A stretch of DNA of 64,000 bases, taken from Runella sp. SP2 (GTDB lineage Bacteria; Bacteroidota; Bacteroidia; Cytophagales; Spirosomataceae). The notes below the pieces were generated by a model. The model ran no database searches. It saw only the letters and a list, made by a program, of their open reading frames with translations, and was not told the DNA's origin. Positions 50,288 through 62,460 of this stretch are shown one piece after another. Every line of letters begins with the position of its first letter. Position 1 is the first letter of the stretch. The DNA is taken from assembly GCF_003711225.1 (NCBI RefSeq), contig NZ_CP031030.1, positions 1,550,001-1,614,000 on the forward strand. Reading direction: 5' to 3'. A program made the position numbers and the translations under genes.

Positions 50288-50340
50288 CCTTCCCGAAAGT
50301 TCAAAACTTTCGGGAAGGTAATTTTTAACCTTTCGGGAAG
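50288..50340. repeat. Palindromic intergenic repeat (CCCGAAAGTT type), one and a half copies
   Basis: CCTTCCCGAAAGTT (50288-50301) pairs perfectly with AACTTTCGGGAAGG (50305-50318); a further half copy, ACCTTTCGGGAAG, follows at 50328-50340. It lies between convergent genes and could act as a terminator. The same core occurs at 53325-53357. Confidence 0.75.
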
Positions 50341-50380
50341 TTAACTCAATTGAAATCCCAAGAGGTTCTCAAACCTTCTT

Positions 50381-51711: not shown

Positions 51712-52563
51712 TTAAATTGACAACATGACCTCAACTCCAGCCCCATTTTTCGACGAAACGTTCACCTCAAATCCCCCTTCCTTGGCCCGTTTCTGAAAAT
51801 TTTTCAGCCCGTTTCCATCGGTGATTGTGGCACAATCAAAGCCTTTGCCATCGTCCGAGATACGAATGCGGAACTCCATGTTTTGTTGGTAAATCCGTAC
51901 TTGCGCGTGAGTTGCTTCGCTGTGTTTGGCGATGTTGTGCAGGGCTTCCTTATAGACCAGATACAGGTTGCGCCGCTGTTCCATCGAAAAAGCAGGTAGT
52001 TGATTGACAGGTACTTCGTTCTCAAACGCAAAAACAATGTCATGGGGCATAAGCAGTTTAAAACCCACGGCTTTCATTTTTTCGATGAGCTTTTCGGGCG
52101 CATCGTTATCGGGGTTCAAGGCCCAGATGGTGTCCCTGATGGTGTGAATGGCTTCTTCTGAATCGTCTTTCATTTGTCCCAACACGGCTTTGAGTTCAGG
52201 CTGTTGGCTGTCCATTTTCTTTTGAACAACTTTGGCCGAGGTGGCAATGCCCGTGAGGGTAGCGCCTACTTCGTCGTGGAGGTCGCGGGCGATTTCGTCA
52301 CGGATTTGCAGGAGTTTCTGTTGCTGATGCAAGTTTTCCTGTAACTGGGCAATGAGTTGTTTTTGTGTTTGTGCTTTTTCTTTGCGGTGTCTATTGGCAC
52401 GCTCAGCAAGAATGAAGCCGAGCATGATGATTTCAATCAAAGTACCAGGAACAAAGAAATTATTGTAGGGAAGATAAGGCAGCCACGGAATATTGTAGAG
52501 TGCAAACATGCTGATAATCATGATTGACGTATTTATTGATGGGGAAAAAACTGTAATAATCAA
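51712..52563 (-). pseudogene. Histidine kinase, C-terminal (kinase) half of a split DISM-type sensor
   Basis: This 283-codon stretch encodes the last membrane helix (GTLIEIIMLGFILAE), a coiled linker, a HisKA_3 dimerisation domain with phospho-acceptor His in IARDLHDEVGATLTG and an ATPase domain (KEALHNIAKHSEATH; ISDDGKGFD; GNGLKNFQKRA). All catalytic motifs are intact. It begins in a different frame inside the end of the sensor half (52460-53224). It could still be translated from a TTG at 52563 or an internal ATG as a short membrane-bound kinase without a sensor. Either a real frameshift or a sequencing error may explain the split; the loss of several membrane helices between the halves favours a real deletion. 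Confidence 0.75.
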
Positions 52564-53224
52564 CGTAGAAGAAAAGAATACTCAGCATCAGCAAGGCGTA
52601 CCAGCCAATCAGAGCGTCTCGCAGGCGAATGGCAAAAATAAAGGCATAGATAAAGACAAGCACATAAATACCCATTGAAAAACTTTGCCAGACGGTATTG
52701 AATCGCTGGTAGGAGAGTGCTTGGTCCAAATTACCAATGTGAATAAAATCGCCGTGGGCATTTTCCGTTACGACTGAAAGATAAACAGTTGAAGGCTTAT
52801 GACCGATTGGAAAAACGGGGGGCTTGATTTGAATTTGCTGGTACAGGGCAGGAAGTGATTCACCCGATTGATAGGCTCGCTTTTGCCCGTTTTCGTCTAT
52901 AATAATAACTTCCATCCGACGAAAACCTCGGTAGCTATGAATGAGGTAGAGGTCTTCTTTTGTCTTATTTTTTACCTCAAACCGTAACCAGATTTTATCG
53001 TAGAAATAACCAAATTGAACAATTTCCTGTTGGTTTAATCGCTGGAAAAAATCCAACGGAAAGTGTGCTATTTCTTCGTAAGGGAGTTGTTTAGTTTTGT
53101 CCTTAAATACATAGGTGTATGGTGCAATCGGGTTAGCTTTTTGGGCATTGGTAATGGTGAGCACCTGCTGCCCCCAAAGTGGCGTCCACACCCCGAAAAA
53201 TAGGAAGAAAAGCAGAAGGCGCAT
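52460..53224 (-). pseudogene. Histidine kinase, N-terminal (sensor) half of a split DISM-type sensor
   Basis: The 254-codon fragment has a signal peptide (LLLFFLFFGVWTPLWG), a 7TMR-DISM extracellular domain (about residues 30-170; FYDKIWLRFEVKN, YRGFRRMEVIIID, STVYLSVVTENA) and only about two membrane helices (YVLVFIYAFIFAI, GWYALLMLSILFFYV) before an out-of-frame tail and stop at 52460. Intact DISM kinases have seven helices before the kinase part, so roughly 100 residues are missing. The next piece continues in another frame at 52563. This looks like a gene damaged by a deletion that also shifted the frame. Confidence 0.7.
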
Positions 53225-53324: not shown

Positions 53325-53357
53325 AACCTCCCGAAAGTTTTAAACTTTCGGGAGGTT
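53325..53357. repeat. Palindromic intergenic repeat (CCCGAAAGTT type), second copy
   Basis: AACCTCCCGAAAGTTT (53325-53340) is the perfect complement of AAACTTTCGGGAGGTT (53342-53357), separated by one base. It shares the CCCGAAAGTT core with the element at 50288-50340, and lies between the broken kinase gene and the end of the cytochrome gene. Confidence 0.8.
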
Positions 53358-53381
53358 GATAACTATTTTATTGCCAATTGA

Positions 53382-54047: not shown

Positions 54048-55130
54048 ATGCTTATCATTGACGCACACCTCGACATGGCCATGAATGCCGTCGAATGGAA
54101 CCGTGACTATACGTGTTCGGTTCAGGAACTTCGTGAACGTGAAATTGAAAAAAACTTGACCGATAAACGCGACCGCGGCAAAGGGACGGTTTCGTTGCCC
54201 GAACTTCGAAAAGGGAAAATAGGCTTGGTAGTGGCAACGCAACTGGCCAGAGTAACCGAGCGCGGCAGTGCCTTTGACGGCTGGTATTCTCCCGCCCAAG
54301 CCTGGGCCATGACCCAAGCCCAACTCGCGTGGTACCAAGCCATGACAGATTTGGGTGAAATGGTGCAAATTACGGATTACGAAGGACTCACAAAGCACAT
54401 TTCGTTGTGGGAAAATACCTCCATCGCCGACGAAACCAAACCTGTTGGTTTTATTTTATCCTTAGAAGGGGCGGACTCGTTGGTAAACCTTTCTTACCTT
54501 GAAAAAGCCTACGGCTACGGATTGCGCGCCCTTGGGCCTGCTTGGTACGGGCCAGGTCGGTATGCGTCGGGCACGGCTACGACCGACGGTTTGACGGCTG
54601 CTGGAAAAGATTTATTACGAGAAATGGACGCGCTCGGAATGATTTTGGATGCCACGCACCTTACCGATAAAGGTTTTGACGAAGCGTTGTCTATTTATAA
54701 AGGTACGATTTGGGCGAGCCACCACAACTGCCGTACGTTGGTGCCTCACCAGCGCCAACTTTCTGACGAGCAAATTTTACGTTTAGTGGAAAGAGGTGCC
54801 GTAATTGGTGGGGCGTTGGATGCTTGGATGATGGCACCAGGGTTTTTGCAACGGCAATCAGACCCCAAAGAATTTGGCGTAACGATGGATAAACTTGTGG
54901 ATCATTGGGACCACATTTGCCAACTGACGGGCAACAGCCTCCACGTAGCATTTGGGACGGATTTGGACGGAATGTTTGGCCGCGAGCAGTCGCCTTACGA
55001 CTTAGACACCATCTCCGACCTGCAAAAGTACCAAGACTTACTGCGCCAACGCGGTTACGCCGAAAGCGATATTGAGAATATATTTCATAAGAATTGGTTA
55101 AGATTATTGGAAAAGACGTGGCGAAAGTGA
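54048..55130 (+). CDS. Membrane dipeptidase-type metallopeptidase (M19 family)
   Basis: The 360-residue enzyme has the M19 renal-dipeptidase TIM barrel with its zinc ligands: IDAHLDMAM at the N-terminus, the bridging Glu in ILSLEGADSL, His in ATHLTDKGFDE and ASHHNCRTLVP, and Asp in AFGTDLDGMFG. Such enzymes cleave dipeptides, including some with a D-residue, and often serve in peptide or peptidoglycan scavenging. No signal peptide is seen, so it may be cytoplasmic here. The final 105 bases of its homologous 3' end occur again at 61877-61981, and its last residues (LLEKTWRK) differ from those of that remnant (LLTNIWK). The gene is complete but seems to have been the insertion site of the islet downstream. 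Confidence 0.92.
   Translation: MLIIDAHLDMAMNAVEWNRDYTCSVQELREREIEKNLTDKRDRGKGTVSLPELRKGKIGLVVATQLARVTERGSAFDGWYSPAQAWAMTQAQLAWYQAMTDLGEMVQITDYEGLTKHISLWENTSIADETKPVGFILSLEGADSLVNLSYLEKAYGYGLRALGPAWYGPGRYASGTATTDGLTAAGKDLLREMDALGMILDATHLTDKGFDEALSIYKGTIWASHHNCRTLVPHQRQLSDEQILRLVERGAVIGGALDAWMMAPGFLQRQSDPKEFGVTMDKLVDHWDHICQLTGNSLHVAFGTDLDGMFGREQSPYDLDTISDLQKYQDLLRQRGYAESDIENIFHKNWLRLLEKTWRK
55001..55105 (+). repeat. 105-bp direct repeat, left copy (3' end of dipeptidase gene)
   Basis: This stretch matches 61877-61981 at 102 of 105 bases. The three differences, at about 55010, 55038 and 55055, are synonymous in the dipeptidase frame. Homology stops in both copies just before the last codons. 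It marks the left edge of a possible insertion of about 6.9 kb. Confidence 0.9.
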
Positions 55131-55256
55131 TTCGTCAATGTTTTTTGAGGCTATAAATTGCGAATGGTGAGGCTAAATAAATGTATTTAGCCTTTACCTT
55201 TAAATGGTTTAGCTTTTGTAGAATATGGTCGGCAGTTCGGTAATTCACTAGATTTT

Positions 55257-55910
55257 TCATAGTTTGACAATACCCGCTTTGACAGCAAACATGGCAAGCC
55301 CCGTGCGGGTTTTGATATTGAGTTTGTCAAAAAGCGCGTCTCGATACCCTTCAACAGTACGTGGGCTACAACACATTTGGTCAGCGATTTCTTTATAGGT
55401 GAGTTCTGTACAAGCATAATGTAAAAACTCTAGCTCTCGATGGCTGAGTTTTTCATCAGAGGAGATAAGCTTCTTATGTTTGTTATTTGAAATTGTTTGG
55501 AGTACAATACTTGTGGCCCAATTTGGAAAATAAATTCCTTGTTCGGTAACATTCGTTAAAGCTTTCTCTAATTCGGCAGGAGGAGTATTTTTATGGAGGT
55601 ACCCTTTTACACCGTATTTTATCATTTTTATCACCGAATCTTCATCATCTTGCATCGAAAGAACGAGTATTTTTACTGTAGGGTATTTTTCTTGGAGCCA
55701 TTGGGCTGTTTGAAATCCATCCATTATAGGCATGGAAATATCAAGTAATACAATATCAGGGACAGAGTCGCGAGTTTTGAATTTGTTGATAAGCACACTA
55801 CCATTTTCAGCTTCATATAAAACCTCAAAATGAGCCATGTTGCGTACCATTGAGCTAATGGCTTTGGCGATAAGTAAGTGGTCATCCACAATTACTACTG
55901 TGTGTTTCAT
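55257..55910 (-). CDS. NarL/LuxR-type response regulator of the islet
   Basis: The 217-residue protein has a receiver (VVIVDDHLLIAKAI; Asp in IVLLDISMPIMDGF; Lys in GYLHKNTPPAEL) and a LuxR helix-turn-helix (LSHRELEFLHYACTELTYKE; CSPRTVEGYRDALFDKLN). Its start overlaps the end of the kinase gene by 29 bases, so the two are translationally linked and surely partners. It is the last gene of a four-gene minus-strand unit that begins at 58063. The region is more AT-rich than the sugar genes to the left, in line with transfer. Likely targets are the divergent genes at 58448 and 60167, or its own operon (inference). Confidence 0.92.
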   Translation of the reverse strand: MKHTVVIVDDHLLIAKAISSMVRNMAHFEVLYEAENGSVLINKFKTRDSVPDIVLLDISMPIMDGFQTAQWLQEKYPTVKILVLSMQDDEDSVIKMIKYGVKGYLHKNTPPAELEKALTNVTEQGIYFPNWATSIVLQTISNNKHKKLISSDEKLSHRELEFLHYACTELTYKEIADQMCCSPRTVEGYRDALFDKLNIKTRTGLAMFAVKAGIVKL

Positions 55911-56703
55911 CGGGAATATTTAAAAATGGAATTGAAAATTGTAAGGTAGTGCCACTGCCCAAAATTGATACGAATGATTCATCAAAAGCAGTTAATTCAC
56001 TCAAACGCCGTTTTACATTGGATAATCCAATCCCCGTACTTTGCATATCTATTTCAAACCCTTTACCATCATCTTTAAATACAAAATCAAGCCTGTTTGG
56101 TTTTATATATATACTAATCCAAATATTTTGACAAGAAGCGTGCTTGAGGCTATTTTGCATAAACTCCTGAGAGGTACGAAAGATATTATTTTTGATAGAA
56201 GTATCCAATAAAAGAGGAGCCGACGGAAGTGATAAATGAACATGGCAACTTCCAAGTTGGTTGAATTGGACTACTTCCTGCCGAAGTAGGTCTTCTAGTG
56301 AAGTATGGGTGAGCTCAGGTTGGACAAGTGATTTTGAGAGTTGCCTTAAATCTTGTAATGAAGTGTCAATTAGTTTGGCGATTTCAGATATTTGAGAAAA
56401 AAAAACATCACTTTTAATCGTTTTAGAATGGAGTAAGCCTTGTGTGTAAATAGACGCGAGTGTAAGCTTTTGCCCGACGTCATCGTGGATTTCCCTGCCT
56501 ATATCGCGCATAGTCTGCTGCTGGATAGCCAGTTGGGTTTCGATAAGTTCTTGTTGATGAAGCTGTTGAAGTAATTGGGTCTCACGGATATATTGTATTT
56601 TACGTTGTCGGTAAAGTACAATAAATGCCAAAATCCCGCCGACAAAAATTAGCAGGACTACGTTGACCAGAATCAGAAATATGGTTAGCTCTTTTTCTGC
56701 CAT
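55882..56703 (-). CDS. Sensor histidine kinase (HisKA_3 type) of the islet
   Basis: The 273-residue protein has one N-terminal membrane helix (IFLILVNVVLLIFVGGILAF), a coiled region rich in Gln, a dimerisation domain with phospho-acceptor His in IGREIHDDVGQKLT, and an ATPase domain (EFMQNSLKHASCQN; FKDDGKGFE; GIGLSNVKRRL). It has no separate sensor domain, so input probably comes from the membrane protein encoded just upstream, with which it overlaps by 19 bases. I took ATG 56703 because an AGG-rich stretch precedes it; a start at 56736 would add eleven residues. Its partner is the regulator at 55257. Confidence 0.9.
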   Translation of the reverse strand: MAEKELTIFLILVNVVLLIFVGGILAFIVLYRQRKIQYIRETQLLQQLHQQELIETQLAIQQQTMRDIGREIHDDVGQKLTLASIYTQGLLHSKTIKSDVFFSQISEIAKLIDTSLQDLRQLSKSLVQPELTHTSLEDLLRQEVVQFNQLGSCHVHLSLPSAPLLLDTSIKNNIFRTSQEFMQNSLKHASCQNIWISIYIKPNRLDFVFKDDGKGFEIDMQSTGIGLSNVKRRLSELTAFDESFVSILGSGTTLQFSIPFLNIPDETHSSNCG

Positions 56704-57350
56704 AGGAAACCTACCGTAAATAGTAAATACATACAAATAGATAAGCAGTACACAATCACCTGATATATTTCAAAAATGTGTTTATAATTTTGAGTTAATG
56801 TATTGTAAGTACCATAATAAGGCAGGGATAGTAGATAATACGAAATGATGCCCAAAATAACCCAAAATTCTATGGTTTTAGCAAAAGACAAAATATAGTC
56901 TGATGCTACAATTTGATACAAATACACAATAATTAGTATCACCATCAAGATACTTCCTACTGTCACCGAAAACGACTGAAAAGTATAGGTTTGTTTTGAA
57001 AAATAAAAATGGTCAAAAAACCAAGCTATTGAATAAATCAATATACTATATTCAGGAACTACCAATACCTTTTGTTTTCTACTTCTAATAAGCTGACTCA
57101 ACAGCCATAGAAAAAATAAATATTCTGAAGGTATAGAGACATAATTATACAATCTGCTGTTGAAGTCCATTTTATTCCATAATCTTGACAGCCATCCAAT
57201 CCACTCAAGTGTGCTAATCCAAATCAAATAGTAAGTTAAGTAACTCCAAAGGGAGTCACTTAACTTACGGTGTTGGGAAATGCCAGCAATTGCTGCAATC
57301 GTTTCTGAAATGATGACCCCAATACTGAGTATCATTATGATCGCGACCAT
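56685..57350 (-). CDS. Six-to-seven-helix membrane protein, probable sensor partner of the kinase
   Basis: I recognise no named family. The 221-residue protein is almost wholly hydrophobic: helices are visible as ILSIGVIISETIAAIAG, LTYYLIWISTLEWIGWL, YLFFLWLLSQLI, YSILIYSIAWFFDHFYF, SILMVILIIVYLYQIV, WVILGIISYYLLSL and IVYCLSICMYLLFTVGFLW. Its stop overlaps the kinase start, and similar membrane proteins without enzymatic domains are often found just ahead of HisKA_3 kinases in Bacteroidota. It is best read as the membrane sensing part of the kinase system (inference). Confidence 0.65.
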   Translation of the reverse strand: MVAIIMILSIGVIISETIAAIAGISQHRKLSDSLWSYLTYYLIWISTLEWIGWLSRLWNKMDFNSRLYNYVSIPSEYLFFLWLLSQLIRSRKQKVLVVPEYSILIYSIAWFFDHFYFSKQTYTFQSFSVTVGSILMVILIIVYLYQIVASDYILSFAKTIEFWVILGIISYYLLSLPYYGTYNTLTQNYKHIFEIYQVIVYCLSICMYLLFTVGFLWQKKS

Positions 57351-57361
57351 TGTAATTCCGT

Positions 57362-58063
57362 TTAGTAATTATCAGTAGATTGCATTAACTCATCGCCGTC
57401 GTTATAAGGTGGGGGCCCCATTCCTCCTCTGTTCATCGCAAAGGGGTTACTGGCGTCTCCTGGAGCAGCTGAAAACATGGAAAAAGTAGCTTTTTCAAGA
57501 CTCTTTTCATTTCTGTAATTGGCCATTACTTCGCTCATCGGCATATACACACACTTACTTTGGGTACTTTTTATATCGAAATCTACATGGGTTTTGTTAC
57601 CTTTTTGGAAAGTTGGTACCAAAAGTAAATTGTGTTTTCGATAATAGACTGAAGATAAGTGGTTAAAATAGTTTTGGGAGGGAGTGTCCATCCTAGTTAG
57701 TTGTGCCTTGTCTGGATATTCTATAAAATAGAAGCGAACTCCCAAGGTAGTTTTTGTTTCTGCTAAACATTCTTTACAGCTTGTTTTTTCCACAAGATAA
57801 ATAAAATGCTTTAGCTTTTCTAGCGGAAACCAAACCCATCGTGTGTCTTTTTTTTCAAACTTATTCCCCCATCTATCTCGGTAATTATCCATCACAGTAT
57901 TCATTGCTTGATATGGGATTTCTTCAATAGGTTTGTTGGAATAATTGTAACAAAACCAATCACAGTTTTTGCCTTGGATACTTGCTAGGTTACTATACTT
58001 ATAGCTTGTATATAACCATAAACTCAATGTAAAGAGGTTAGAAATAATCAGGAACTTCTTCAT
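57362..58063 (-). CDS. Exported or membrane-anchored protein of unknown function, first gene of the islet sensory operon
   Basis: The 233-residue protein has an N-terminal hydrophobic segment (FLIISNLFTLSLWLYTSY) that could be a signal peptide or anchor. The mature part has pairs of cysteines (NCDWFCYN; SCKECLAE; SKCVYMP), several Trp/Tyr-rich stretches (DTRWVWFPLEKLKHFIYLV) and a Gly/Pro-rich tail (NRGGMGPPPYNDGDE). I know no family for it. It precedes the membrane protein by 11 bases, so it should be part of the same signalling operon and could be the extracytoplasmic ligand-binding member. The start at 58063 was chosen for its better signal and spacing. Confidence 0.6.
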   Translation of the reverse strand: MKKFLIISNLFTLSLWLYTSYKYSNLASIQGKNCDWFCYNYSNKPIEEIPYQAMNTVMDNYRDRWGNKFEKKDTRWVWFPLEKLKHFIYLVEKTSCKECLAETKTTLGVRFYFIEYPDKAQLTRMDTPSQNYFNHLSSVYYRKHNLLLVPTFQKGNKTHVDFDIKSTQSKCVYMPMSEVMANYRNEKSLEKATFSMFSAAPGDASNPFAMNRGGMGPPPYNDGDELMQSTDNY

Positions 58064-58447
58064 CTTAGGAATAATATTAAAGTGAAACACTAAATGAATA
58101 TTACAAATATAGATGCTTTGGGAAATTAGAATCGTTGCCAGTGAAGCGTGGTAAATGCGTATTTTGGATTAAGTATCTGTATATCAAGTGTATATATTTA
58201 ATTTGTCTCTTGCAATCAAGTGTTTTTACGCATTAAATACCGTTAAATAACGGTATATGTTCTCGTTAAAAATCGGCATAAAAATCCGTTTTTTGTGGCT
58301 TTTGTCGCTTTTAAAAATGCTACACCTTTGTACTGTCAATTTTAATAATTCTTTACATAGTATCATTATAAGAATTATAGTTTTTAAAACGCAGAAGCCG
58401 AAAAGCGTACAATAGAGTAGGTAAGTTTATAAAATAATTTCCAAATA
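58064..58447. promoter_or_regulatory. AT-rich divergent control region of the islet
   Basis: These 384 bases hold no gene and separate the minus-strand sensory operon from the plus-strand pair. ATACCGTTA (58237-58245) and TAACGGTAT (58248-58256) make a 9-bp inverted repeat with a 2-base spacer, a good candidate operator for a dimeric regulator such as the islet's LuxR protein. The last 60 bases hold the leader repeat listed separately. No clear -33/-7 promoter pair was found. Confidence 0.45.
58386..58421 (+). repeat. Leader repeat, copy upstream of the GATase-like gene
   Basis: The 36-base stretch begins AAAACGCAGAAGCCG and ends AATAGAGTAGG; it matches 60112-60147 with two substitutions near its ends and middle. 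It lies 26 bases before an ATG. ACGC and GCGT inside could form a small hairpin. Presence before both genes of the pair implies a shared control signal. Confidence 0.8.
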
Positions 58448-60106
58448 ATGAAAGAGTTAGAAGAGCAATTTAAAAACATGTATTTGCTAAATCGGGATGA
58501 GAGACTAGACCTTATAAGAAAACTAGAAACTTTGAAACCCGAGTTTTTTAAGGCATTTACGCCAAAATGGTGGTGGTGGCGGCGCTGTACCGTTAAGGTT
58601 TTGGTTGTTACTGATGGTGGACTGAATTTTGGTACTGGCGTTGTAGGGCTTTCTGAATTTTTAACAGCCTTTAACCAACTTCAGGCTACTACATGGAATA
58701 ACTATCAGATTACACTTGGGCATCGTTCTAGCTCTCCTCCAAGCCTTAATCCCTTGGTGGTAAATCAGATAAGTAGCTTCAACTTTCAAACCAGTGTCAA
58801 CTTGAATGATTTTGATCAAGTTTGGCTGTTTGGTATAAATTCAGGTTCAGGACTTTCGCAAAGCGAATTGCCTGTTGTTGAGGCATATATGAATGGTGGT
58901 GGCGGTTTGTTCGCGACTGGTGATCACGGAAATTTGGGTTCTGCCCTGTGCGGAAATATTCCAAGAGTGAAAGATATGCGTTATTGGGCTGATACACCTG
59001 CAGGTGCTTCAAATGATGCCAATGAGGTGAGTATGAGTGGGCGTAGAAGAAACGACACTAATAGACCTCGTTTGGGTGATGCTACTTCTCTTTTCTTCGA
59101 TAATCAGTCCGACAATATTCCACAGACTATCGCCGTGAGAACTTTTGGCAGTGGGATGCCGCATCCCTTGTTGTCTATTAGCACAAACATTAGAGCATCT
59201 GGGATTATAGACATCATGCCCGACCACCCGCACGAAGGAGAATGTAAGCCCGAAACGTCGTTTACCATTAACAATGTCACCGTTCCTACCCAAATTATTG
59301 CTACCTCCTTTGTTATGGGGGGAAGTACAACTGGTGGAGGGAGTGGTAAAGCACTGACAGACCCTCACTGTTTTCCTTCTATTGCCGTGTGGGATGGGCG
59401 TTTGGCCAACGTTGGCCGTGTCGTTGTGGACTCTACTTGGCATCATTTTGTAAATGTGAATTTGAATGGAGTAGGCTCACAGGGAGGAATGGGTTTTACG
59501 CCAAATGATAGATCAGGGCAACAATCTGGTTTAGCAACTGCCGATTTTAACATCATACGGCAGTACTTCATGAATATTTCATTGTGGATGTCAAGAAGAA
59601 AATCTTGGCTGTGCTGGAGAAGATTCTTGTGGATTGAACTATTGAGAGACTCCCAACTCATAGAAGCTAGTTTGAACAATCCTGTTGAAAAGCTTGAAAA
59701 TATTTCATTGGCGGATTTAAGTAGTATTGGATCCTTAGCAGAAGAAATACTATCATCAAAACTTAACCCGTCACTCGCTCGTGAGTTTTTAGTCGAATCG
59801 CTTGAGACAACAAACCCTAATGTGGCATCTATGCTTAATGTGTGGAAGCCTAAAAGCAAAGAGCAGCAGAAAGGGTATTATCAGCCATGGCTCAATCTTG
59901 ATTTGATTCTTTATACGTCTATTGGGGCGGGTTTTATTGCTCTAAGAGATGATAAGAGTATTTCGGGGGAAGAATTGAATGAAAAAGACTTAGACCGTGT
60001 GACAGAAATATTCACTAAAGGCATGGCTTTCGGATTCGATAAATCCATTGAAAACCTCAGTTCAAATCTTAAAAATTTTGCTTCTGAAGCGAGGTTAAAA
60101 TTATAG
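58448..60106 (+). CDS. Cytoplasmic protein with a GATase1/ThuA-like domain, unknown function
   Basis: The 552-residue protein has no signal peptide. The first 45 residues are charged and helical and end in KWWWWRRC. Then comes a Rossmann-like fold with VKVLVVTDGGLNFGTG, VWLFGINSGSG, LSQSELPVVEAYMNGGGGLF and ATGDHGNLGSALCG, which recalls the class I glutamine amidotransferase/ThuA superfamily; the Cys in SALCGN and His in GDHGN could be catalytic, but the nucleophile elbow is not canonical. Later there is GRVVVDSTWHHFVNVNL, also found in such proteins. The last 150 residues are helical. It precedes a subtilisin-like protease gene with which it shares a 36-base leader repeat. Function unknown. 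Confidence 0.6.
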   Translation: MKELEEQFKNMYLLNRDERLDLIRKLETLKPEFFKAFTPKWWWWRRCTVKVLVVTDGGLNFGTGVVGLSEFLTAFNQLQATTWNNYQITLGHRSSSPPSLNPLVVNQISSFNFQTSVNLNDFDQVWLFGINSGSGLSQSELPVVEAYMNGGGGLFATGDHGNLGSALCGNIPRVKDMRYWADTPAGASNDANEVSMSGRRRNDTNRPRLGDATSLFFDNQSDNIPQTIAVRTFGSGMPHPLLSISTNIRASGIIDIMPDHPHEGECKPETSFTINNVTVPTQIIATSFVMGGSTTGGGSGKALTDPHCFPSIAVWDGRLANVGRVVVDSTWHHFVNVNLNGVGSQGGMGFTPNDRSGQQSGLATADFNIIRQYFMNISLWMSRRKSWLCWRRFLWIELLRDSQLIEASLNNPVEKLENISLADLSSIGSLAEEILSSKLNPSLAREFLVESLETTNPNVASMLNVWKPKSKEQQKGYYQPWLNLDLILYTSIGAGFIALRDDKSISGEELNEKDLDRVTEIFTKGMAFGFDKSIENLSSNLKNFASEARLKL

Positions 60107-60111
60107 TTCTA

Positions 60112-60147
60112 AAAACGCCGAAGCCGAAAAGCGTATAATAGAGTAGG
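60112..60147 (+). repeat. Leader repeat, copy upstream of the subtilisin-like protease gene
   Basis: This is the second copy of the 36-base element, six bases after the previous stop codon and 19 bases before the protease ATG. It reads GAAGCCGAAAAGCGTA then AATAGAGTAGG, nearly as in the copy at 58386. Confidence 0.8.
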
Positions 60148-60166
60148 CACTTATCCCTTACGTTTT

Positions 60167-61786
60167 ATGAAAATGAAAAATAAACAATTAAAAGAAGATG
60201 GGCAGGCCAGTGCCCCCGAAAAATTGTTTGCGTTTGCGTCTGTTCGTTCAGTTGGAGGAAAGTCACTTTTTGACGAAAAAGACATTGTCACCTCTCAAAA
60301 TGCACACTTGTTTCAATCAGAAGAGCAGTTGATTACACAAGCAATTAAGAAATTTACGGAACTTGGTTTTGAAGTCTTAGGTCAGTCAAAAATTGGGGTG
60401 TCTATTGCAGGGCCGATTTCATTGTATGAAAAAATATTCAAGACTAAAATTTCATCCAATGAGAAGCGAGTTATCAAAGAGTCTGGTAAAGAAGACGATG
60501 CCACTTTTTGGGATTCAAACAATAGCCCCACCCCTGGATTGATTAATACAAACGAGTCTCCATTGGCCGATTTGATAGAAGGGATTGCTATTGAAGAACC
60601 CATATATTTCATGTCAGAACGGATTATTGGTCCATATAAAACATACAACCATTTGACAGTTCCTGATGGGGTTGGGGTAGTTTTGAATGCCTACCAAGCA
60701 CATCGGTCTGGCTTTACTGGTAAAGGTATCAAAATATGTATGGTAGATTCGGGTTGGTATAAGCACCCGTTTTTCTTAAGCCGTTATTATAACGTGCTTA
60801 CACCGTTGTTAGGGCCATCAGCTGTTTCTCCTCTAACGGATGAAAATGGACATGGTACATCTGAGTCCGCTAATATTTTTGCCGTGGCACCTGAAGTAAC
60901 GCTCCAACCCGTTAAAATCAATTTTGTCAATTCTATTGGAGCTTTCAACGTAGCGGTTGCTCAATCTCCCCAAATTATTACGTGCAGCTGGGGGTCGAGT
61001 ATTCGCAATCCTCCCTTATCTGCGGCCAATCAAGCTCTAGCGGCATCCATAGCGTCAGCAGTAGCTAGCGGGATTGTTGTAGTATTTTCTGCGGGAAATA
61101 TCCACTACGGTTTTCCTGGCCAACACCCTGACGTGATTTCGGCAGGTGGGGTGTATCGAGAAATGGATGGTACGCTTAAAGCGAGTAACTATGCTAGTGG
61201 GTTTACAAGCAATATTTATATAGGTAGAAAAGTGCCTGATTTGTCGGGTTTGGTTGGAATGCTGCCAAGAGCGGCCTATTTGATGTTGCCACTCCCTGCC
61301 AACTGTGAAATAGACCAAGCTTTAGGCAATGGAAGTCCACACCCAAATGGTGATGAAACAGCCACAAATGATGGTTGGGCAGCGATCAGCGGTACATCAG
61401 CCGCCGCACCACAGATTGCGGGAGCTTGCGCATTAGTTTTGCAGGCATATCCAGGCATTTCTCCTGCACGTGTACGGTCATTTCTGATGTCCACAGCAAC
61501 AGATGTCACGATTGGTGTAGGTGGAAATGGTTCAGTAGCGACAGTAGGGTATGATACCGCCACTGGAGCTGGGCTTTTGAATGCAGGTAAAGCGGCGCTA
61601 CTAGCCAGATGGAGGCGGATTATTGAATCAATCGTTATTCGACCCAATCCGATTCCACCAATACTACCAGAGCGTCCGAATATGTTTGCGGCAGAACACC
61701 AAGCAGCATACATGGCCGCCAATAATCATTACAATGACAATACTAACTTATTTCAACAAATTGAAGATTTGATTCTTCAAAATTAA
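60167..61786 (+). CDS. Subtilisin-like serine peptidase (S8 family) without a signal peptide
   Basis: The 539-residue protein has the complete subtilase triad: Asp194 (ICMVDSGWY), His229 (ENGHGTSES) and Ser411 (ISGTSAAAPQIAG), plus the oxyanion Asn in VFSAGNIHYG. The first 150 residues look like an inhibitory prodomain (LGFEVLGQSKIGVSIAGP, ISLYEKIFKTKI), reminiscent of those in the kumamolisin group, although the triad is of S8 type. No signal peptide is seen, so the protease may act in the cytoplasm, or leave by a non-Sec route. The 80-residue tail is Pro-rich (RPNPIPPILPERPN) and then helical. It is paired with the 552-residue protein by strand and shared leader. A processing or effector protease is suspected. 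Confidence 0.88.
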   Translation: MKMKNKQLKEDGQASAPEKLFAFASVRSVGGKSLFDEKDIVTSQNAHLFQSEEQLITQAIKKFTELGFEVLGQSKIGVSIAGPISLYEKIFKTKISSNEKRVIKESGKEDDATFWDSNNSPTPGLINTNESPLADLIEGIAIEEPIYFMSERIIGPYKTYNHLTVPDGVGVVLNAYQAHRSGFTGKGIKICMVDSGWYKHPFFLSRYYNVLTPLLGPSAVSPLTDENGHGTSESANIFAVAPEVTLQPVKINFVNSIGAFNVAVAQSPQIITCSWGSSIRNPPLSAANQALAASIASAVASGIVVVFSAGNIHYGFPGQHPDVISAGGVYREMDGTLKASNYASGFTSNIYIGRKVPDLSGLVGMLPRAAYLMLPLPANCEIDQALGNGSPHPNGDETATNDGWAAISGTSAAAPQIAGACALVLQAYPGISPARVRSFLMSTATDVTIGVGGNGSVATVGYDTATGAGLLNAGKAALLARWRRIIESIVIRPNPIPPILPERPNMFAAEHQAAYMAANNHYNDNTNLFQQIEDLILQN

Positions 61787-61795
61787 ACATAGCTC

Positions 61796-61838
61796 AAACG
61801 CCCTCCTCAAATATATAAAAAGGAGGGCGTTTGTTTTT
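61796..61838 (+). terminator. Intrinsic terminator after the protease gene
   Basis: AAACGCCCTCCT (61796-61807) pairs with AGGAGGGCGTTT (61821-61832), followed by GTTTTT. It ends the islet's plus-strand pair. Confidence 0.9.
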
Positions 61839-61876
61839 CTAGACTATGCCGACTCTCTCAACTTCAATTTATACTT

Positions 61877-62003
61877 CTTAGACACTATCTCCGACCTGCA
61901 AAAGTACCAAGACCTACTGCGCCAACGCGGCTACGCCGAAAGCGATATTGAGAATATATTTCATAAGAATTGGTTAAGATTGCTTACAAATATTTGGAAA
62001 TAG
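61877..62003 (+). pseudogene. Remnant of an M19 dipeptidase 3' end (right copy of the direct repeat)
   Basis: The frame reads LDTISDLQKYQDLLRQRGY and goes on to NWLRLLTNIWK followed by a stop, i.e. the last 41 codons of a dipeptidase gene like that at 54048, with only three synonymous changes in the shared 105 bases. There is no start codon or upstream part, so it cannot make an enzyme. Its own last codons and stop differ from those of the complete gene. It is most easily explained as the old 3' end displaced by an insertion. Confidence 0.9.
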
Positions 62004-62181: not shown

Positions 62182-62460
62182 ATGCGTAAAATTTTATTTG
62201 CCAACTTAGTTGTAATACTTATTGCGACTGGGAACTTGATGGCGAAAGACAGGGCACTGTCGGGAGCCGTCAAGGTTGAAAACGGGCAAAGGCTGCCCGG
62301 TATGAACATTCTACTCAAAGGCACCAACCGAGGGACGAACTCCGACGGTAATGGTGCCTTTAAACGTTCGGTTCCAGCTTCTGGAACTTTTGTCTCTTCT
62401 TCAATGGGCTACGAAACAAAAGAAGTAGCGTTCGGTTCAAGGGTATTTGTTTCAATTTAA
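62182..62460 (+). pseudogene. Short SusC-like fragment: signal peptide plus carboxypeptidase-like domain only
   Basis: The 92-residue frame has a signal peptide (ILFANLVVILIATGNLMA) and one carboxypeptidase-D-like regulatory domain (RLPGMNILLKGTNRGTNSDG, then SSMGYETKEVAFGS), exactly the part with which SusC proteins start, and then stops. A complete susC gene begins 20 bases later with its own signal peptide and the same domain. The likeliest explanation is the residue of a second, lost susC gene; a functional small exported domain cannot be ruled out. Upstream in-frame codons add 12 residues without signal character, so ATG 62182 was taken. Confidence 0.65.

What the first reader, a model, noticed from the sequence alone, without database searches (positions are those of the whole stretch)
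55001..62003. About 6.9 kb islet bounded by a 105-bp direct repeat of a dipeptidase 3' end
Seen: 102 of 105 identical bases between 55001-55105 and 61877-61981, changes all synonymous, right copy start-less with a different tail. The DNA between is AT-rich and unrelated to sugar genes. Inference: an element entered at the 3' end of the dipeptidase gene and supplied a new 3' end, as integrative elements do. No integrase is visible, so recombination with a foreign allele is also possible.
Basis: partly seen in the sequence, partly recalled or inferred. Interest (0 to 1): 0.75.

Follow-up and report, generated by a model that had tools for sequence, protein, structure and literature searches.

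The report
Swappable gene islet behind dipeptidase gene
An acquired block of six genes (a sensor and regulator set, an unstudied protein and a protease) sits in the end of a dipeptidase gene of a Runella bacterium; nine of ten related genomes examined lack it, and the tenth carries the same block with a different protease in the last slot.

Summary
The repeat is real: 102 of 105 bases, all three changes synonymous. Relatives settle its nature. Of 10 congeneric relatives with an orthologous dipeptidase, 9 have an empty site and 1 (G001, Runella defluvii DSM 17976) is occupied. In the empty relative G004 the native gene end corresponds to the tail of the RIGHT copy. So DNA entered, gave the left gene a new end (7 codons), and left the native end at the far side. 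No recombinase gene was found.

The islet holds a four-gene two-component module (P233, M221, kinase, regulator), a 552-aa protein without a Pfam, NCBIfam or PHROG match (Q552), and an S8 subtilase. Q552 and the subtilase each follow a copy of the orphan cis-regulatory RNA DUF805b (RF02914).

Against R. defluvii, four islet genes have synonymous divergence 0-0.02 (P233 0.11), flanking genes 0.19-0.28; the left junction has diverged like the host gene. So the insertion seems older than the species split and its interior exchanged recently. Identity stops at the end of the second DUF805b RNA: R. defluvii has another subtilase there, then 41-43 bp of dipeptidase tail. Best reading: an old, non-autonomous insertion whose last gene is a swap slot.

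The parts
54048..55130 (+). membrane dipeptidase (M19), complete; hybrid: host body, foreign last 7 codons
   Evidence: PF01244 E=1e-49; alignment with G004
55001..55105 (+). left repeat copy
   Evidence: 102/105 with 61877-61981
55106..55130 (+). new 3' end of the gene (LEKTWRK, stop)
   Evidence: 13/25 to G004, 15/25 to G008, 24/25 to G001
55257..55910 (-). response regulator, NarL/LuxR type (RR217)
   Evidence: PF00072, PF00196
55882..56736 (-). histidine kinase (HK284)
   Evidence: PF07730, PF02518
56685..57350 (-). 221-aa protein, apparently membrane (M221), no family
   Evidence: gene neighbour in L119-L124
57362..58063 (-). 233-aa protein (P233; 242 aa from a GTG), no family
58239..58254 (.). 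palindrome ACCGTTAAATAACGGT in the divergent region, candidate regulator site
   Evidence: same form upstream of P homologues in 3 of 7 other loci with this module; by itself not beyond chance (26 of 100 shuffles, one mismatch allowed)
58388..58423 (+). DUF805b cis-regulatory RNA, copy 1
   Evidence: RF02914, 45.8 bits, cut-off 35.6
58448..60106 (+). Q552, 552-aa protein of unnamed family
60114..60149 (+). DUF805b RNA, copy 2; its end is where identity with R. defluvii stops
   Evidence: RF02914, 48.7 bits; block end 60149
60167..61786 (+). S8 subtilase, 539 aa: variable slot
   Evidence: PF00082; R. defluvii has another S8, 439 aa, here
61877..62003 (+). right repeat copy running into the native dipeptidase end and stop
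   Evidence: same tail and downstream DNA as empty-site G004

Best explanation
One old insertion, then recombination at its edges. In a common ancestor of this Runella and R. defluvii, DNA carrying a sensor module, Q552, a subtilase and a stretch of dipeptidase 3' end recombined with the host dipeptidase gene. The simplest geometry is a single (Campbell-type) crossover between a circle and the gene: it leaves a complete gene with a foreign last 7 codons on the left and a start-less piece joined to the native end on the right. Shown: insertion, new end, native end on the right, empty site, recent exchange of the interior, a different last gene in the second carrier. Inferred: the circle; whether an integrase in trans or homologous recombination acted; that the DUF805b leader and the dipeptidase tail were the homology patches of the swap. 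Function, inferred: the P233-M221-HK-RR module senses an outside cue and controls Q552 through the divergent region, while the DUF805b RNA adds a second control shared by Q552 and whichever subtilase sits in the slot.
For: Empty site in 9 of 10 congeneric relatives whose orthologue is at least 83% identical: the downstream flank begins within about 75 bp of the gene end. G004's end and downstream DNA continue the right copy. Left-junction DNA 55066-55256 is found in full only in G000 and G001 of 59 genomes. The new tail reads like a dipeptidase C-terminus (KTW beside G004's NTW), as if from another allele. Left junction 55106-55250 differs at 8/145 sites from R. defluvii, like the gene body 42/1058 (p=0.37), while 55251-57394 differs at 9/2144 (p=3e-6). 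dS: RR 0.022, HK 0.016, M221 0, Q552 0.014, P233 0.109; dipeptidase 0.185, TonB receptor 0.276, upstream kinase 0.25. Block end equals the end of the second RF02914 match. The right repeat is nearer to R. defluvii's left copy (105/106) than to its own left copy (102/105). GC3 of the islet genes is low.
Against: No donor locus, circle or recombinase was found; the 38-bp core has no exact match in viral contigs. Stretch 55041-55065 is of one type in both copies but 14/25 to G004; a single crossover with a G004-like host does not explain this unless the host already had that type or it was converted. P233 is more divergent than its neighbours (dS 0.109), so the exchange is patchy. Only two occupied genomes exist, so direction and order of events are open. 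The RNA as a recombination patch rests on one coincidence of endpoints.
Confidence: 0.72

Rival explanations
1. A site-specific integrative element that has lost its integrase, or moves with one supplied in trans; the repeats are attL and attR.
For: Repeat at a gene 3' end, new end supplied, empty sites. Both carriers share the 41-bp core.
Against: No recombinase in the islet; the core has no third copy in the 59 genomes beyond the dipeptidase genes themselves; repeat length differs between carriers.
Confidence: 0.3
2. Linear donor DNA, in which the islet already lay behind a dipeptidase gene, was joined by homologous recombination on the left and end-joining on the right; the right copy is a remnant of the host gene.
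For: The new tail resembles a dipeptidase end; the right copy is native downstream; both copies are of one type at 55041-55065.
Against: No donor with that gene order in 59 genomes.
Confidence: 0.2
3. Two independent insertions of related islets into the same site in the two species.
For: Low dS of the interior and different right ends.
Against: The left junction 55106-55250 is shared and has diverged like the host gene.
Confidence: 0.1
4. An old tandem duplication of the gene end.
For: A partial copy exists.
Against: 9 of 10 relatives have a single copy and no islet; the islet genes have low GC3.
Confidence: 0.01

Closest known systems
Genomic islands at gene 3' ends, e.g. the Riemerella anatipestifer 10K island (PMC6764341, passages seen) and the dusA/trmE islands (PMC8409611, start of abstract in the listing)
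   Same: Foreign genes bounded by a direct repeat at a host gene; strains without the island exist.
   Different: The 10K island has an integrase and a 53-bp perfect repeat at an Arg-tRNA gene; here no recombinase, a protein gene, and repeats of 105 or 41-43 bp.
DUF805b RNA (Rfam RF02914)
   Same: Two copies above the gathering score, each upstream of an ORF.
   Different: Sits inside an acquired islet and its end coincides with a cargo boundary; a second helix, not in the model's structure line, is supported by covariation.
Subtilases beside class-V-lanthipeptide-like genes (HopA1, APH)
   Same: The two nearest relatives of the 539-aa subtilase among 198 genomes (55-56%) lie beside such genes.
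   Different: None of those genes in this islet.
NarL-type two-component systems
   Same: HisKA_3 kinase and regulator with GerE domain.
   Different: Comes as a four-gene cluster with two unnamed partners.

Membership tests
Integrative element / genomic island with site-specific recombinase | direct repeat of a host gene end at both edges | tested here: met
   102/105; 41-43 bp in R. defluvii
Integrative element / genomic island with site-specific recombinase | empty site in relatives | tested here: met
   9 of 10 congeneric relatives
Integrative element / genomic island with site-specific recombinase | recombinase gene in the element | tested here: not met
   no recombinase family among six islet ORFs
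Integrative element / genomic island with site-specific recombinase | excision or circular form | not testable with these tools
   needs PCR or reads
DUF805b RNA (RF02914) | match above the curated gathering score | tested here: met
   48.7 and 45.8 bits against 35.6
DUF805b RNA (RF02914) | cis-regulatory position upstream of an ORF | tested here: met
   58388-58423 before 58448; 60114-60149 before 60167; regulation itself not tested
Class V lanthipeptide cluster | kinase-like, HopA1-like and precursor genes beside the protease | tested here: not met
   HopA1 and APH in L125 and L126, LANC_like in L125 (LxmK match of L125 below cut-off); none in the islet
S8 subtilase, active enzyme | PF00082 with Asp, His, Ser triad | tested here: inconclusive
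   PF00082 E=4e-26; the three motifs read by eye; activity not tested
ThuA-like / amidotransferase-like fold (Q552) | significant fold match | tested here: inconclusive
   model pLDDT 85; best PDB match 4e5v_A, E=5.9e-4, TM-score 0.26 by query

The most novel reading that the evidence does not exclude
The islet is a sensor-effector module with a cargo slot: a conserved orphan pseudoknot RNA (DUF805b) marks the genes of a regulon (proteases, a caspase-like and a lectin-like protein, small peptides), and its conserved sequence also acts as the upstream homology patch for exchanging cargo at a chromosomal slot closed by the target gene's 3' end.
Probability: 0.25. Interest if true: 0.75.

Novelty: new variant of a known kind. 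Interest (0 to 1): 0.5.

Why it matters
It shows a small islet without a recombinase that restored its target gene, persisted through a species split and still exchanges genes between species. It links an orphan RNA family to acquired effector genes and gives a narrow regulon in which the ligand or role of that RNA could be tested.

Tried and rejected
Tandem duplication: rejected by the empty sites. Transposon: no transposase family among islet ORFs. Defence system: PADLOC gave a generic subtilase model (E=9e-11) and otherwise weak matches from 0.001 up. A G008-like donor for the new end: dropped, because G008 matches the left copy at 23/25 in 55041-55065 but only 31/40 in the core and 15/25 in the tail. 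Injection-system (eCIS) cargo: one of 80 Q552 relatives (L128) lies among tail-sheath-like genes (gene names by eye), and no sheath relative was found in G000 or G001. Plasmid or phage origin: one weak plasmid match and no phage record for Q552; one of the viral contigs, L251, carries a Q552 relative (75%) beside capsid and portal genes; none for the kinase. Direct link of Q552 with subtilases: few subtilases near the 80 relatives.

Dropped rows: the cytochrome row was out of frame and is not used. In the RNA alignment, 5 of 30 loci (L220, L223, L230, L238, L245) were left out as duplicates or for brevity. Sixteen of the 18 leaders were judged by eye; eight of 17 Q552 relatives showed no such leader.

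Full report
Observation. The 105-bp repeat is present as described (102/105, three synonymous changes) and has no third copy in the genome. The window lies in a genome of 7.6 Mb in 4 contigs. Its relative G001 is Runella defluvii DSM 17976: contig C9 has the length of NZ_JACIBY010000009.1.

Empty site. Of 12 congeneric relatives, G002 had no dipeptidase match and G005 only one of 67%. The other 10 have an orthologue of at least 83% aa identity. G001 is occupied. In the other nine (G003, G004, G006-G012) the DNA that follows the islet here begins within about 75 bp of the gene end. In G004 the gene ends as the right copy does, so the right copy is the native end and the left copy has the new one. 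The new end, 7 codons, reads like a dipeptidase C-terminus. The 191-bp left junction occurs in full only in G000 and G001 of 59 genomes.

Age and exchange. Between this genome and G001 the four genes RR, HK, M221 and Q552 have dS 0-0.022 and P233 0.109, while the dipeptidase, the TonB receptor and the upstream kinase have 0.185, 0.276 and 0.25 (a simple Nei-Gojobori count). The junction 55106-55250 differs at 8/145 sites, like the gene body at 42/1058 (p=0.37), and unlike 55251-57394 at 9/2144 (p=3e-6). I read this as an insertion before the split, with the interior exchanged later. Stretch 57395-57660 is more divergent, so the exchange is patchy. The right copy is 105/106 identical to G001's left copy and 102/105 to its own; this fits either an exchange from a G001-like donor or slow change since one duplication.

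Swap. Identity with G001 ends at 60149. Beyond it G001 has an S8 subtilase of 439 aa, then 41-43 bp of dipeptidase core and the native tail. The two subtilases are only distantly related (43% over 71 residues).

RNA. The 49-bp repeats before Q552 and before the subtilase are DUF805b RNA, RF02914, at 45.8 and 48.7 bits (cut-off 35.6). The second ends at 60149, the block end. DUF805b gave matches in 44 of 59 related genomes at E of 0.001 or less, in 26 above the cut-off, and in 0 of 14 control genomes. Of 30 loci listed, 20 downstream proteins were scanned: 8 had a Pfam family above cut-off (outer-membrane barrel, S8, caspase, ricin-type lectin, DUF6973, DUF805, DUF4440, secretion tail), 3 only matches below cut-off, 9 none. 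One small protein has a lanthipeptide-leader match just below cut-off. Leaders of other Q552 genes show the motif in 9 of 17 cases by eye. At gathering threshold 5 loci gave none; four scored 29.7-34.2 bits, below cut-off; L139 has two copies above it, one on each side of its Q552 gene, and L130 one below.

Pseudoknot. In 31 sequences a second helix pairs the loop (columns 13-16) with the 3' end (40-43). With helix 1, 87.6% of cells pair against 65.0% shuffled; covariation 0.568 against 0.147, 0 of 500 shuffles as high; slid versions fall to 20-43%. Pair 14-42 is standard in 30 of 31 with five pair types. Pair 13-43 fails in 21 of 31. Relatedness can inflate the shuffle test. The structure line printed for the Rfam model has one helix only. 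I cannot say this helix is new: the paper that I recall as the source of the family is not held, and searches for DUF805b and DUF805 listed no paper on the RNA (listings only).

Module. P233, M221, kinase and regulator homologues stand together in 6 of 6 loci fetched because they hit M221 or P233; M221 matched in 13 and P233 in 6 of 198 genomes. In L129, a Flavobacteriales contig, a kinase and a regulator piece lie divergent from a Q552 gene with two more ORFs of like size between, which are not matched by sequence. The palindrome at 58239-58254 recurs upstream of the module in L119, L120 and L122 but not in L121, L123, L124 or L129.

Q552. Homologues in 11 of 198 related genomes and 188 stretches of genome contigs, 80 kept, from several phyla. 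Invariant residues include GDH, PDH.HEG and D.TWHH. A model with mean pLDDT 85 has its best PDB match to a ThuA-like protein, weakly. One relative lies on a contig with phage capsid and portal genes.

Verdict. Insertion with a new gene end is well supported; its recombination mechanism is open; the exchange and the second subtilase are shown; the role of the RNA in the swap is inference.

Noticed in passing
52522/52523: Relative to R. defluvii, 323 bp are missing inside a kinase-like gene, which is split here into ORFs 51712-52563 and 52460-53224 (one 615-aa ORF in G001).
   Followed up: partly
62182-62460: Short ORF with a CarboxypepD_reg domain resembles the start of a longer receptor-like ORF found at this place in L006 and L008-L011: apparently a receptor stub.
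   Followed up: partly
58388-58423 and 60114-60149: DUF805b RNAs carry a covarying second helix (pseudoknot).
   Followed up: yes
L249 (G000:C1:1532397-1532432), outside the window: A third DUF805b RNA of this genome precedes a 188-aa protein like the ricin-lectin-like one of L237.
   Followed up: partly
L125, L126: Relatives of the 539-aa subtilase lie beside HopA1-like and APH-like genes.
   Followed up: partly
L251: Q552 relative on a contig with phage capsid and portal genes.
   Followed up: partly
50291-50345 and 53329-53360: Repeated hairpin-like sequences TCCCGAAAGTT...AACTTTCGGGA.
   Followed up: no
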